A stretch of DNA of 64,000 bases from Halobellus salinus (GTDB lineage Archaea; Halobacteriota; Halobacteria; Halobacteriales; Haloferacaceae): the NCBI RefSeq assembly GCF_014646875.1, contig NZ_BMOC01000006.1:1-64000 (forward strand), given 5' to 3'. The notes beneath the pieces were generated by a model that saw only the letters and a program-made list of their open reading frames with translations, was not told where the DNA came from and made no database searches. Of this stretch, positions 11,615 to 59,516 are shown piece by piece; position 1 is the first letter of the stretch, and each line of letters opens with the position of its first letter. The translations under genes and the position numbers were made by a program.

Positions 11615-13177
11615 ATGACTCGAACGATGACGGACCAACACGGAACGACGACGGACCAACACGGAACGACGACGGACCAACACGGAACGACGACGGACCA
11701 ACACGGAACGACGACCGTGGGACAGTTGCCGGCACCGACACCCACGGACTCTCGGGTGCCTTCGGTTCTGACGCGACTCGCTTGGCTCCTCTGGGTCGCG
11801 AGCCTCGGGGTCGTCGTCGCGCGGTTCGTGACTGACACCTCGTGGGGAGTCACGGGAGTCGTGGTGATAGACGGGATGACGGCCGTTATGTGGGCGGCGG
11901 TCACCTTCTTCAGTGGTATCGTCCACAGCTACTCCCGGCGTTACCTGGCCGGGAGCCGGCACATCGACCGGTTCTTCAAGCGGGTGTTCGCGTTCACACT
12001 GGCTGTGATGGTACTCGTGGCCGCGGACAGCTTTCTCCTGTTTTTAGCGGCGTGGATCGCTATGGGGCGTGTGATGGCCAACCTGATCGGCCACGTCGAG
12101 GGGTGGCCGCAGGCGCAGGCCGCCGCGGGACGTGCCCGCCGGTACTTCCTGGCGGGCGGCGCCGCGGTCGCGGTCGCGCTCGGCGCGCTGTGGTGGACAA
12201 CCGGCGCGGCAGCGATCTCGGCGGTGCCGGCGGCCGTCCCGACTGCGCCACCGGCGGCCGTGCTCGTCGCTGCCGTCGCGCTCCTGCTCGCGGCGGTGAT
12301 CCAGTCGGCGCTGGTGCCGTTCCACACCTGGCTCCTGTCGTCGATGACGGCGCCGACCCCGGCGTCGGCGCTCATGCACGCCGGGTTCGTGAACGCCGGC
12401 GGGGTCCTCTTGATCCGGTTCGCGCCGGTGGTCGCCGCCGACGCCGGCGTGATGCTCACGGCGGTCGTCGTCGGCGCGGCGAGCGCGATGCTCGGAAAGC
12501 TCCTGAAGACGGTTCAGACCGATGTCAAGGGCGAACTCGGCTGTTCGACAGTGGGGCAGATGAGCTTCATGATCGTGCAAGCCGGCCTCGGATATTTCGC
12601 GGCCGCGGTCACCCACCTGATCCTCCACGGGTTCTACAAGGCGTATCAGTTCCTGAGCGCGGGCGACGACGTCGACCACGAGAGCCCGACCGCGACGGCG
12701 GAGTCGGGGGCGACCACGCCGTTCGGTGTGGTCGTGACCGCCGGCACCGCACTCGCCGGTGGCGTCACCTTCGCGGCGCTGACCGGGAAGGGGACCGCAC
12801 TCGACACCGGGCTCCTGCTCACGCTGCTCGTGACCCTGACGACCCTCCACGCCGCCCGGGAGGTGGTGGCCGACTCGGCGCTCCCACCCGGAGTGCGGTA
12901 CGGTGCTGTGCCGGTGGTCGCGATCCCGGCGATCGCCGTCTACGCGGGCGTCTACAACGCGGTCAGCGGGCTGCTCGCCGAGGTTCCGGGGGTCGGGGAG
13001 CCGGTGGCGTTGACCCCGGTCCACGGGGTGGTCGCCGTCGCGTTCGTCGTGGCGTACGTCGCCGTCGAGACTCGTGTCTACACGCGCAGCCGGCGGCTCT
13101 ACGTCACGCTTCTGAACGCCACCCAACCCGCGCCCGAAACCCAACTCACCACGACGGAGGAGTACAATGAGTACTGA
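11615..13177 (+). CDS. dabB: DabB-like NuoL-type membrane subunit of an inorganic carbon transporter
   Basis: 520-residue proton-translocating membrane protein homologous to complex I NuoL/MrpA. About thirteen membrane helices are present; the antiporter core includes GRVMANLIGHVEGW, VPFHTWLLSSMTAPTPASALMHAG and a Lys helix near MLGKLLKTVQTDVKGELGCSTV. In the Dab system DabB couples an ion gradient to CO2 hydration by its cytoplasmic partner DabA, and the next gene is dabA, overlapping by 11 bp. The N-terminus carries four exact TDQHGTT heptad repeats before the first helix; translation may begin at 11615, at ATG 11627, or downstream of the repeats. A generic Mrp/NADH dehydrogenase-like subunit is less likely given the dabA neighbour. 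Confidence 0.86.
   Translation: MTRTMTDQHGTTTDQHGTTTDQHGTTTDQHGTTTVGQLPAPTPTDSRVPSVLTRLAWLLWVASLGVVVARFVTDTSWGVTGVVVIDGMTAVMWAAVTFFSGIVHSYSRRYLAGSRHIDRFFKRVFAFTLAVMVLVAADSFLLFLAAWIAMGRVMANLIGHVEGWPQAQAAAGRARRYFLAGGAAVAVALGALWWTTGAAAISAVPAAVPTAPPAAVLVAAVALLLAAVIQSALVPFHTWLLSSMTAPTPASALMHAGFVNAGGVLLIRFAPVVAADAGVMLTAVVVGAASAMLGKLLKTVQTDVKGELGCSTVGQMSFMIVQAGLGYFAAAVTHLILHGFYKAYQFLSAGDDVDHESPTATAESGATTPFGVVVTAGTALAGGVTFAALTGKGTALDTGLLLTLLVTLTTLHAAREVVADSALPPGVRYGAVPVVAIPAIAVYAGVYNAVSGLLAEVPGVGEPVALTPVHGVVAVAFVVAYVAVETRVYTRSRRLYVTLLNATQPAPETQLTTTEEYNEY
11630..11713 (+). repeat. Four perfect 21-bp tandem repeats at the 5' end of dabB
   Basis: Four identical 21-bp units, each encoding TDQHGTT, follow one another without a mismatch. 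The exactness suggests recent expansion. It changes the length of a polar, His-containing N-terminal tail if the ATG at 11615 or 11627 is used. Confidence 0.95.
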
Positions 13178-16638: not shown

Positions 16639-16847
16639 ACCTGCTGTGTGGAACCGAACCGACTAAGAGATACGCTGCCGGAACCGCAACGTATGCCGGA
16701 TCGCGCCCGGAGCGACTGAACCACTCCGGTTCGGACAACGTCAGATCAAAGACGGGTACAAACGCTCCCGAGGCGGGCCCACACGACCTCCGCCACCACC
16801 GGGATCGGCGTCGTCGACCCGACGGTCGCGCCGGGTACCGGGACGCC

Positions 16848-17011
16848 GGAAGGCGGAGGGCGGAGAGCGGAGAGCGGAAGGCGGAGGGCGGAGAGCGGAA
16901 GGCGGAGGGCGGAGAGCGGAAGGCGGAGGGCGGAGAGCGGAAGGCGGAGGGCGGAGAGCGGAAGGCGGAGGGCGGAGAGCGGAAGGCGGAGGGCGGAGAG
17001 CGGAAGGCGGA
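16848..17011. repeat. Intergenic 21-bp tandem array
   Basis: Seven full copies and one partial copy of a 21-bp unit made of three related heptamers (GGAAGGC, GGAGGGC, GGAGAGC). One extra GGAGAGC lies between the first and second copy. The array is nearly perfect, purine-rich on the plus strand, and lies between the cyclase gene and the winged-helix regulator gene. The open frames across it (SALRLPL-type repeats) come from the repeat itself. Sequence on either side (16639-16847, 17012-17100) shows no gene. Confidence 0.95.
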
Positions 17012-32396: not shown

Positions 32397-32915
32397 GTGA
32401 CGGAGAGCGCATCACCGGCGCCAGCAAGTGCTGACATGGCGAGCCCGGAGACGGTCGGACCCGCCGCGGGCGGTGCGAAAGACCTGGCCAACTTTCGGGA
32501 AAACGTCGCGAACGGGTATACGCCACAGCCGGCGGCGATCAGCGACGAGGGGCTGTTCTACGACTACCATTTCGAGACGGGGACGCGGACCGAATCGGAC
32601 GCCCTGTTCGCGCCGCGCTACGCGGCTGCCGTGAGTGACCACCCGATCAGTGGGGAGACCGAACGCTACCTGTCGGTGGGGCTGGATTCGACGCTCTCGG
32701 TCGACGAGTTCGAGCGGCCCCGGCTGAATCTCGTCGCCGTCCTCGACGTCTCCGGGTCGATGGACAGCGCCTTCGACGCGTACTACTACGACGAACACGG
32801 GCGCAAGTGCGAGGCTGAGGACGATGCGGCGACGAAGCTCGACGCGGCGACCCAGTCGCTGTGTGCGCTCACCGAGCAGCTCCACGCCGAGGACCGTCTG
32901 GGGGTCGTCCTCTAT
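32397..32915 (+). pseudogene. VWA-domain protein, truncated
   Basis: A GTG start follows the previous stop without a gap. The protein has the lead-in of haloarchaeal VWA proteins (ANFRENVANGYTPQP, LFYDYHFETG, SGETERYLSVGLDS) and then the domain core with the MIDAS motif LNLVAVLDVSGSMDSAF. Homology stops after DRLGVVLY. From about 32912 the frame reads unrelated sequence and ends near 32970. Most of the VWA domain and everything after it is missing, so the product is probably non-functional. The break coincides with the 3' end of another broken gene on the opposite strand. Confidence 0.72.
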
Positions 32916-33411
32916 CGTCTGCCGTTGTATCTTGCCCAGACGATTGGAGGTCCCGAATTATGTCGATGACTTGGCGTCCGTGAAGATTGATACTGTCGGC
33001 TATAGTCGCGTGACGTATTTCGACACCCCGGGGTGTCGAAAATCTTCACGTAGTTATAGCCGACAGTATGAGGAGAATATGCCGAGCAAACTCACGATAC
33101 AGTTGATTTTCGTCATCTCTCAGTTCGTATAGTCGCTCACCGAGATCGGTGAAGCGGAAATCGTCGATAACGAGCTGATATCCCTGATTCTTGAGTCCCA
33201 GTACGACCAAGCGTGCACGTTCCTCGGGGTTTCAAGAGCTCTCGAAGAATCGCTCAGCAACGACTAACTGGAACTCCGCTTCTTCGCCTTCGTGTTCCCC
33301 AACCAGCTCGAGGACTGCTGCAAGTTTCGTGTATTCTCCGGTTTCAGTATCGAGCTGCGCCGGGCTCAACGCATCTCCGAAGGGGAAGTCAGATTCATTC
33401 CCAGTTATCAA
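32914..33411 (-). pseudogene. Broken gene of unknown function, split by a palindromic element
   Basis: Reading the minus strand from TTG 33411 gives ITGNESDFPFGDALSPAQLD, then KLAAVLELVGEHEG and FQLVVAERFFESS before an in-frame TGA (33232-33234). The frame continues with NPEERARLVVLGLK, YELRDDENQLYREFARHILL. It is then interrupted by the 78-bp palindrome (32991-33068) and resumes as NLHGRQVIDIIRDLQSSG. It ends where the vwa fragment ends. The SDFPFG opening and ARHILLNLHG resemble a haloarchaeal family I cannot name. Confidence 0.6.
32991..33068 (+). repeat. 78-bp palindromic element, copy 1
   Basis: The ends are TACTGTCGGCTATA and its exact reverse complement. The centre is TTCGACACCCC followed by its exact reverse complement. 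Between them lie 13-bp segments that differ between the arms. TGA flanks both sides (32988-32990 and 33069-33071). Removing the element and one TGA restores the reading frame of the surrounding broken gene. Confidence 0.9.
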
Positions 33412-33447: not shown

Positions 33448-33755
33448 TCATAGTTTCCCGCGGCCCGGTTCAATCCCTCGCTCGTAGGTGGTGGTGGCAA
33501 CGACGAACCGTACACAGAGCGCAAGGAGCACTTCTGTTTGTGCCTAGACGCGGCTTCGGGCGCGAACGTGCCCGAGGACGCAGTCTTTGACCACGTTGTT
33601 GGATGGTTCGACGCCTGTCCGGTGGTTGTACGTCTCGTTCAAGATGGATTGCTTCAGGTGAACATCCTCAGTGTGTTCGGTGATGCGGTCTTCGACCCTA
33701 TACTCGGCAATATCAGCCGCACTAGGGCCTGCTGATGCGGTTTTGTGGGATATTC
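33448..33755 (-). pseudogene. C-terminal remnant of a haloarchaeal IS transposase
   Basis: The minus strand encodes TASAGPSAADIAEYRVEDRI, then HLKQSILNETYNHRTGVEPS, VVKDCVLGHVRARSRV, an in-frame stop (near 33552), and ALCVRFVVATTTYERGIEPG. The NETYNHRTGVE and YERG pieces are typical of the C-terminal end of haloarchaeal transposases. The 5' part of the gene is missing. I am not certain of the IS family. Confidence 0.65.
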
Positions 33756-33766
33756 GAGTGTGGCGT

Positions 33767-33805
33767 GTTCGATTGCCCGGTTCGATTGCCCGGTTCGATT
33801 GCCTG
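33767..33805. repeat. Three 13-bp tandem repeats
   Basis: GTTCGATTGCCCG occurs twice exactly and a third time with one change, next to the transposase remnant. Cause and role are unknown. Confidence 0.85.
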
Positions 33806-34122
33806 TTCTGATTGCGTCTGCTCTTTCACCGACCCGGGGGCATTGGGGGTCGATGGAAAGCACTGAGCGAGCCTGGCCGTCTGTGCGTCTCTAATGGCCG
33901 ATATGGCTATGCTTTCAGACGGACCCTTAGGTGGGTGAAGCTCCCTAATCGATGTTTTGGGTTCAGATATCATAACGGTAACCGTCTGTGTGAAAGCGCA
34001 GCGAAGCGAGCACCCTGGAACGTCTCGCGTGTGTCAAATCGAGGAAAGCGGACTTTCCGACGGAATCCGGCAGGGCGTGCGGGACCAACATACTTTATTC
34101 GATACTGTCCTGTGGTTGATGT
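33806..34122. other. Intergenic region with promoter of the sugar dehydrogenase gene
   Basis: No gene is seen. TACTTTATT at about 34091-34099 lies about 27 bp before the ATG at 34123, a good TATA box for a leaderless transcript. Confidence 0.55.
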
Positions 34123-36896: not shown

Positions 36897-37168
36897 GCAT
36901 CAACTGATTTTCAAGCCGGGGTCACCTTCGTCACCGAGTGGTAACGCCACTGTATCGGCCGCTCTCACCGAGCCGGTACCTCAGACCCGCCGGGTGGTGG
37001 GGGCAGTGAAGCGACAAGACACTACGCTTGACGAGCTGGATCAAATAAAGGCAATATTCGAAAGTGATAGGTCAGCACGATTGAGCTTAATACCGAGTTT
37101 CATCAGTAATCTCGGTGTCGCCTCTCGTTCCACAAACTCTAGTTCAATCTCGTTTAAACAGCCGTTGA
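36897..37168. other. Intergenic region, no gene seen
   Basis: About 270 bp between the PKD protein gene and palindrome copy 2. An open frame runs through it from the upstream gene in another phase, but composition and lack of a start give no support for a protein. Confidence 0.4.
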
Positions 37169-37246
37169 TACTGTCGGCTATAGTCGCGTGACGTATTTCG
37201 ACACCCCGGGGTGTCGAACATCTTCACGTAGTTATAGCCGACAGTA
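37169..37246 (+). repeat. 78-bp palindromic element, copy 2
   Basis: Identical in layout and length to copy 1, with a single visible base difference (CGAACATCTTC versus CGAAAATCTTC). TGA is on both sides (37166-37168 and 37247-37249). Same orientation as copy 1. Confidence 0.9.
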
Positions 37247-37247
37247 T

Positions 37248-37294
37248 GAGGCGGTCGTTTTCGGGCATAGATCACTCAGAAAACGAACCGCCTC
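37248..37294. other. Inverted repeat directly after palindrome copy 2
   Basis: GAGGCGGTCGTTTTC and GAAAACGAACCGCCTC are reverse complements with one bulged base, separated by 16 bp. It could be a bidirectional terminator between the PKD gene and the convergent SDR gene, or the end of a lost element. Confidence 0.5.
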
Positions 37295-59266: not shown

Positions 59267-59366
59267 CGACAACACGTACCACCGGCGGGCGCAAAAGCGT
59301 TCGGCAGACGGGGCCTTCCCGCGAGCGGTTATATACGATCCCGCGGCCAGACCCCGCGTGATCTGA

Positions 59367-59444
59367 TACTGTCGGGTATAACTACGTGAAGATTTTCGAC
59401 ACCCCGGGGTGTCGAAATACGTCACGCGACTATAGCCGACAGTA
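59367..59444 (-). repeat. 78-bp palindromic element, copy 3 (inverted orientation)
   Basis: Same length and ends as copies 1 and 2 but with the two variable 13-bp segments exchanged, so it is inserted in the opposite orientation. One outer-arm base differs (GTCGGGTATA). TGA is on both sides (59364-59366 and 59445-59447). It lies between the PH-like gene and the MutS-like gene, in GC-rich core DNA. Confidence 0.9.
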
Positions 59445-59516
59445 TGAGAACAGCCCCGTGTCGGGTCGCAGTTGTCCGGCACGTTGACGCGGGGATCGCG
59501 GTGTGTCGGCTGTTCG

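What the first reader, a model, noticed from the sequence alone, without database searches (positions are those of the whole stretch)
32991..33068. A 78-bp palindromic element in three copies with TGA on both sides (also 37169-37246 and 59367-59444)
Seen: three copies of identical length. Each has 14-bp terminal arms (TACTGTCGGCTATA; one substitution in copy 3), a 22-bp perfect central palindrome and two 13-bp variable segments that distinguish the arms. All are flanked by TGA left and right. Copy 3 is inverted. Three copies in 64 kb, one far outside the IS-rich part, implies a multicopy family. Inference: a non-autonomous mobile element (MITE-like) with a 3-bp target duplication, mobilised by a transposase not in this window. 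The folded RNA would be a very stable hairpin, so it could also affect transcript ends.
Basis: partly seen in the sequence, partly recalled or inferred. Interest (0 to 1): 0.78.

Follow-up and report, generated by a model that had tools for sequence, protein, structure and literature searches.

The report
Haloarchaeal 78-bp hairpin transposable element family
The three repeats belong to a recently amplified family of about 65 tiny hairpin-shaped mobile DNA elements in this salt-loving archaeon; they insert by duplicating a 3-base target, have relatives across many haloarchaea, and the enzyme that moves them was not found.

Summary
The 78-mer is present three times as described, and about 65 times in the 3.07-Mb host genome (a Halobellus species). 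Of 43 copies examined, 28 are identical to copy 1. In 41 of 43 the same 3 bp stand on both sides, always TGA or TCA here and TNA in relatives; the target consensus is the palindrome Y-TNA-R. Empty sites were found for window copy 3 (three Halobellus species), for a copy splitting a membrane-protein gene (six relatives, flanks meeting exactly once 78+3 bp are removed), and for a Halomicrobium plasmid copy. This is a MITE, moved in trans by a cut-and-paste transposase.

Relatives with TACTGTCGGCTRTA ends occur across Halobacteria, mostly 76-78 or 107-108 bp long, with covarying stems. No autonomous partner was found by end-pattern searches, among the host's DDE_Tnp_1 genes or in about 2 Mb of fetched DNA, but 14 host contigs under 3 kb are withheld. 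The Y-TNA-R target hints at an IS5-type enzyme. Insertion exactly at stop codons is frequent (8/43) but no more than this target plus selection predicts. It is a new family of a known kind.

The parts
32991..33068 (+). MITE copy 1, 78 bp (reference copy)
32991..33004 (+). left terminal inverted repeat of copy 1, TACTGTCGGCTATA
   Evidence: sequence; end conserved in relatives
33055..33068 (-). right terminal inverted repeat of copy 1
   Evidence: sequence
33018..33041 (.). 24-bp perfect central palindrome of copy 1
   Evidence: sequence; covarying pairs in relatives
32988..32990 (+). target duplication TGA, left of copy 1
33069..33071 (+). target duplication TGA, right of copy 1
37169..37246 (+). 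MITE copy 2, 78 bp, one mismatch to copy 1; TGA at 37166-37168 and 37247-37249
59367..59444 (-). MITE copy 3, 78 bp, inverted, one mismatch to copy 1; TGA at 59364-59366 and 59445-59447 (+ strand)
   Evidence: empty site in three Halobellus species

Best explanation
A non-autonomous DNA transposon (MITE) of 78 bp: two 14-bp terminal inverted repeats around an imperfect palindromic interior, with no gene of its own. SHOWN: high copy number, near-identity of copies, a 3-bp TNA duplication, a palindromic target preference Y-TNA-R, exact empty sites (78 + 3 bp) in relatives, and covarying stems among distant relatives. INFERRED: a DDE-type transposase acting in trans pairs the two TACTGTCGG ends, moves the element and joins it across a 3-bp stagger at Y-TNA-R; the enzyme is perhaps of the IS5 superfamily, whose groups use TA, YTAR or TNA targets (own knowledge). 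Spread is by lineage-specific bursts: about 65 copies in this genome, 123 candidate places in one congener, nine matches or fewer in the other Halobellus genomes.
For: Copy number and identity. Equal TNA flanks in 41/43 copies, fourth base never equal, Y before in 32/41 and R after in 37/41. Empty sites: gene split at G000:C4:941-1018 intact in relatives, flank spacing exactly 0 after removing 81 bp in six of seven compared; window copy 3; LC1Hm plasmid copy absent from pHmuk01. A restored lipoprotein signal at locus L006. Class-wide relatives with the same ends and TNA flanks and covarying stems.
Against: No autonomous element with these ends was found, although 28 identical copies imply recent activity; but 14 own contigs of 547-2,760 bp are withheld. 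PF13359 (Harbinger-like) is absent from eight genomes searched. Current mobility was not observed directly.
Confidence: 0.95

Rival explanations
1. A REP/BIME-like or PATE-like palindrome moved as single-stranded DNA by a Y1 HUH transposase (RAYT or IS200/IS605 type).
For: Small, palindromic, multicopy, stable hairpin; PATEs are common in haloarchaea (PMC3119063).
Against: HUH elements and PATEs have no terminal inverted repeats and make no target duplication (PMC3119063); here both are present and exact.
Confidence: 0.02
2. A host regulatory or transcript-end hairpin kept by selection at gene ends rather than a mobile element.
For: Stable hairpin; 8/43 own copies and 3/5 LC1Hm plasmid copies sit directly after a stop codon.
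Against: Copies also break genes; patchy species distribution; the stop-codon share equals that expected for a TNA target avoiding genes (about 19%). A side effect on transcripts is not excluded.
Confidence: 0.02
3. Copies spread by duplication of larger segments.
For: One pair of copies (L012, L023) shares its flanks and one more pair is partly alike.
Against: All other flanks compared are unrelated beyond the TNA, and exact empty sites exist.
Confidence: 0.01

Closest known systems
MITEs of haloarchaea (Haloquadratum walsbyi, PMC3119063)
   Same: Short, transposase-free, terminal inverted repeats, target duplication, strain- or species-specific insertions.
   Different: Those were tied to known transposons through their ends; here no transposon with TACTGTCGG ends was found. 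Here the whole element is a near-palindrome of 78 bp. I did not compare the sequences with the Haloquadratum elements.
Small mobile repeats SMR-A/SMR-B of Haloquadratum (PMC3119063)
   Same: About 80-110 bp, prominent inverted ends, no known partner transposon, high copy number.
   Different: SMRs make no target duplication; this family duplicates TNA.
PATEs / IS605-type terminal-only elements (PMC3119063)
   Same: Palindromic, transposase-free, multicopy in haloarchaea.
   Different: PATEs lack terminal inverted repeats and target duplications.
IS5-superfamily elements with TNA or YTAR targets (e.g. IS1031, IS5; own knowledge)
   Same: Short symmetric target of the TNA/YTAR type.
   Different: No transposase is linked to this element, and the TACTGTCGG end differs from the ends of those groups as I remember them.

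Membership tests
MITE | Short, non-coding, terminal inverted repeats | tested here: met
   78 bp, 14-bp ends
MITE | Target site duplication of fixed length | tested here: met
   TNA in 41/43 copies, never 4 bp
MITE | High copy number with unrelated flanks | tested here: met
   about 65 copies; flanks unrelated apart from two pairs
MITE | Empty sites in relatives | tested here: met
MITE | Ends shared with an autonomous transposon | tested here: inconclusive
   none found; small own contigs withheld
IS5-superfamily-mobilised MITE | TNA-type symmetric target | tested here: met
   Y-TNA-R; shared with other families, so not sufficient
IS5-superfamily-mobilised MITE | IS5-type transposase with the same ends | tested here: inconclusive
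   16 own DDE_Tnp_1 matches, none with these ends
PATE / IS605-derived | No terminal inverted repeat and no target duplication | tested here: not met
   both present
SMR (Haloquadratum) | No target duplication | tested here: not met
   TNA duplication
Rickettsia-type palindromic coding element | In-frame insertion kept in expressed proteins | tested here: not met
   78+3 bp keeps frame and one phase is open in both orientations, but the two clear intragenic copies, L006 and L018, break their genes

The most novel reading that the evidence does not exclude
A class-wide, old superfamily of ultra-short palindromic elements (ends TACTGTCGG, TNA target) that spreads without any recognisable autonomous transposon. 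Most fall in two length classes about 30 bp apart (76-78 and 107-108 bp, roughly three helical turns) with pair-conserved stems, implying that a still unknown haloarchaeal transposase needs helically phased ends or a hairpin or cruciform substrate.
Probability: 0.15. Interest if true: 0.62.

Novelty: new member of a known kind. Interest (0 to 1): 0.38.

Why it matters
Haloarchaeal genomes hold many short mobile repeats whose movers are unknown. This family offers exact boundaries, a clean 3-bp TNA duplication, a symmetric target motif and several empty sites, so the responsible transposase can be sought and tested directly. It explains a repeat that could otherwise be read as a regulatory hairpin, and shows that insertion at a TGA stop codon leaves the protein unchanged, a quiet way for an element with this target to spread. 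The recent burst in this host makes it a candidate that is still active.

Tried and rejected
Autonomous partner: looked for among own DDE_Tnp_1 loci, by end patterns that exclude the MITE body in the genus, the class and chosen genomes, by PF13359, in all fetched DNA and in the smallest own contigs (14 of 20 are withheld as N). A 1,034-bp candidate in G201 (L209:1501-2534) proved to be a 76-bp MITE invaded by other elements, one of them holding a pilin-like gene. Viral-contig matches to the end motif have low G+C and no second end, so I take them as chance; no phage match. Stop-codon targeting beyond expectation: not supported (8/43 against about 19% expected). Rfam: no family over the element. 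Literature: the sequence is not described in the papers found.

Full report
OBSERVATION. The repeat finder recovers them as one family and as overlapping inverted arms. Copies 1 and 2 are direct and copy 3 is inverted; copies 2 and 3 each differ from copy 1 by one base. The hairpin is far more stable than shuffled sequence (-47.1 against -18.8 kcal/mol, z -10 as RNA; z -9.8 as DNA). The central perfect palindrome is 24 bp in copies 1 and 3 and 22 bp in copy 2.

COPY NUMBER. The host genome has 71 forward and 72 reverse matches to the 14-bp end with up to two mismatches, against 7 and 7 for the reversed control pattern; this gives about 65 elements, in line with 67 first-look candidates. Of 43 copies whose flanks I read, 28 are identical to copy 1 and 10 have one mismatch. 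The genus is Halobellus: contig lengths of G004 and G006 equal those of H. limi plasmid NZ_CP031312 and H. rarus NZ_JANHDI010000004, and the H. limi match coordinates coincide. Within the genus one other genome (G008) has 123 candidate places; the rest have nine matches or fewer. In the family 24 of 170 genomes have a match, in 7 of 28 genera.

TARGET DUPLICATION. In 41 of 43 own copies the three bases before and after the element are equal (TGA or TCA); a four-base match is never seen. Relatives also show TAA and TTA. Read in the TGA direction, the base before is Y in 32/41 and the base after is R in 37/41, so the target is the palindrome Y-TNA-R. This fits a transposase dimer cutting with a 3-bp stagger (inference).

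EMPTY SITES. (a) The copy at G000:C4:941-1018 splits a membrane-protein gene into two matches (96% and 97% identical), while 44 of the 59 other genomes searched have a match, in nearly all cases one uninterrupted stretch across the junction. In six of seven relatives compared base by base (L339-L344) the two flanks abut with spacing exactly 0 when 78 + 3 bp are removed; the seventh (L345) did not align. (b) Window copy 3 lies downstream of a conserved MutS-like ATPase gene; the homologous sites of H. rufus, H. rarus and H. captivus lack it, and an ungapped alignment runs through the joined target (56-59 of 87 identical); two other Halobellus genomes were too diverged there to judge. (c) In Halomicrobium sp. 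LC1Hm plasmid pLC1Hm-01 a 78-bp relative starts right after the TGA stop of an ABC-transporter gene; in H. mukohataei pHmuk01 the flanks are contiguous, in agreement with the absence of exactly 81 bp. (d) Removing the element plus one TGA from locus L006 restores a reading frame that begins with a twin-arginine-like lipoprotein signal.

RELATIVES. Class-wide, the end TNA-TACTGTCGGCTRTA, with the MITE centre excluded, occurs in 40 of 391 genomes against very few control hits. Paired ends with equal TNA fall mostly at 76-78 bp (42 distinct sequences) and 107-108 bp (6), with singletons at 24, 42, 70, 73 and 79 bp and a few composites. Many loci were fetched by similarity to a 78-mer, so the length classes are only suggestive. 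Named relatives sit on plasmids of Haloarcula, Halomicrobium, Natribaculum, Haloplanus and Halobellus. In 12 diverged 78-mers the stems covary (26 cells changed on both sides against 15.2 shuffled; covariation score 0.193 against 0.123 shuffled and at most 0.102 slid); pair 33-46 appears as G-C, C-G and A-T. Pairs 16-63 and 18-61 almost never match (0/16 and 1/16), so the two arms keep a consistent difference there. The pairing may reflect selection or arm-to-arm correction during replication; the data do not separate these.

MECHANISM. Shown: past mobility, boundaries, duplication, target. Inferred: trans-mobilisation by a DDE transposase that recognises TACTGTCGG ends. The symmetric Y-TNA-R target recalls IS5-superfamily groups (own knowledge), but no such element with these ends was found. 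Searched: the own genome's 16 DDE_Tnp_1 matches, five end-pattern scans, PF13359, and about 2 Mb of fetched DNA for paired TACTG ends 600-2,600 bp apart. The 14 smallest own contigs, 547-2,760 bp and thus IS-sized, are withheld, so absence cannot be claimed.

STOP CODONS. Eight of 43 own copies have the TGA duplication as the in-frame stop of a reading frame with coding-like codon usage (L020, L021, L022, L024, L027, L028 and L037 clearly, L019 marginally), and 3 of 5 copies on the annotated LC1Hm stretches start directly after a stop codon. On an annotated Halobellus plasmid stretch TGA stops are 34 of 179 (19%) of stop plus intergenic TGA/TCA sites, so the own-genome figure needs no special targeting.

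VERDICT. A MITE family, not described in the literature I could search, of a known kind; the missing mover and the class-wide palindromic architecture are the open points.

Noticed in passing
window 33508-33819 (-): Remnant of a DDE_Tnp_1 transposase with an internal stop, about 440 bp from MITE copy 1; its surroundings show no TACTGTCGG ends of its own.
   Followed up: partly
window 32397-32969 (+): A VWA-like reading frame that looks cut short just before MITE copy 1, at the edge of the IS-rich stretch.
   Followed up: no
L209:1501-2534 (G201): A 76-bp relative of the MITE invaded by a second small repeat and by a further segment with AGCGTGT-type inverted ends that holds a pilin-like reading frame.
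   Followed up: partly
L181:1535, L210, L217, L238 (G201): A second, 108-bp MITE-like family with ends TACTGACGGACAAAAG / TACTGGTGGACGAAA, found inserted inside members of the first family with TGA on both sides.
   Followed up: partly
L081:2439-2462 and L227:1504-1545: 24-bp and 42-bp versions made of little more than the two ends, still flanked by equal TNA; internal deletions or minimal elements.
   Followed up: no
L099:218-293 (G000): A strongly diverged 76-bp relative with TCA on both sides, an older layer of the family in the same genome.
   Followed up: no
window 11622-11726 and 16841-17008: Tandem arrays of 21-bp units, unrelated to the element.
   Followed up: no
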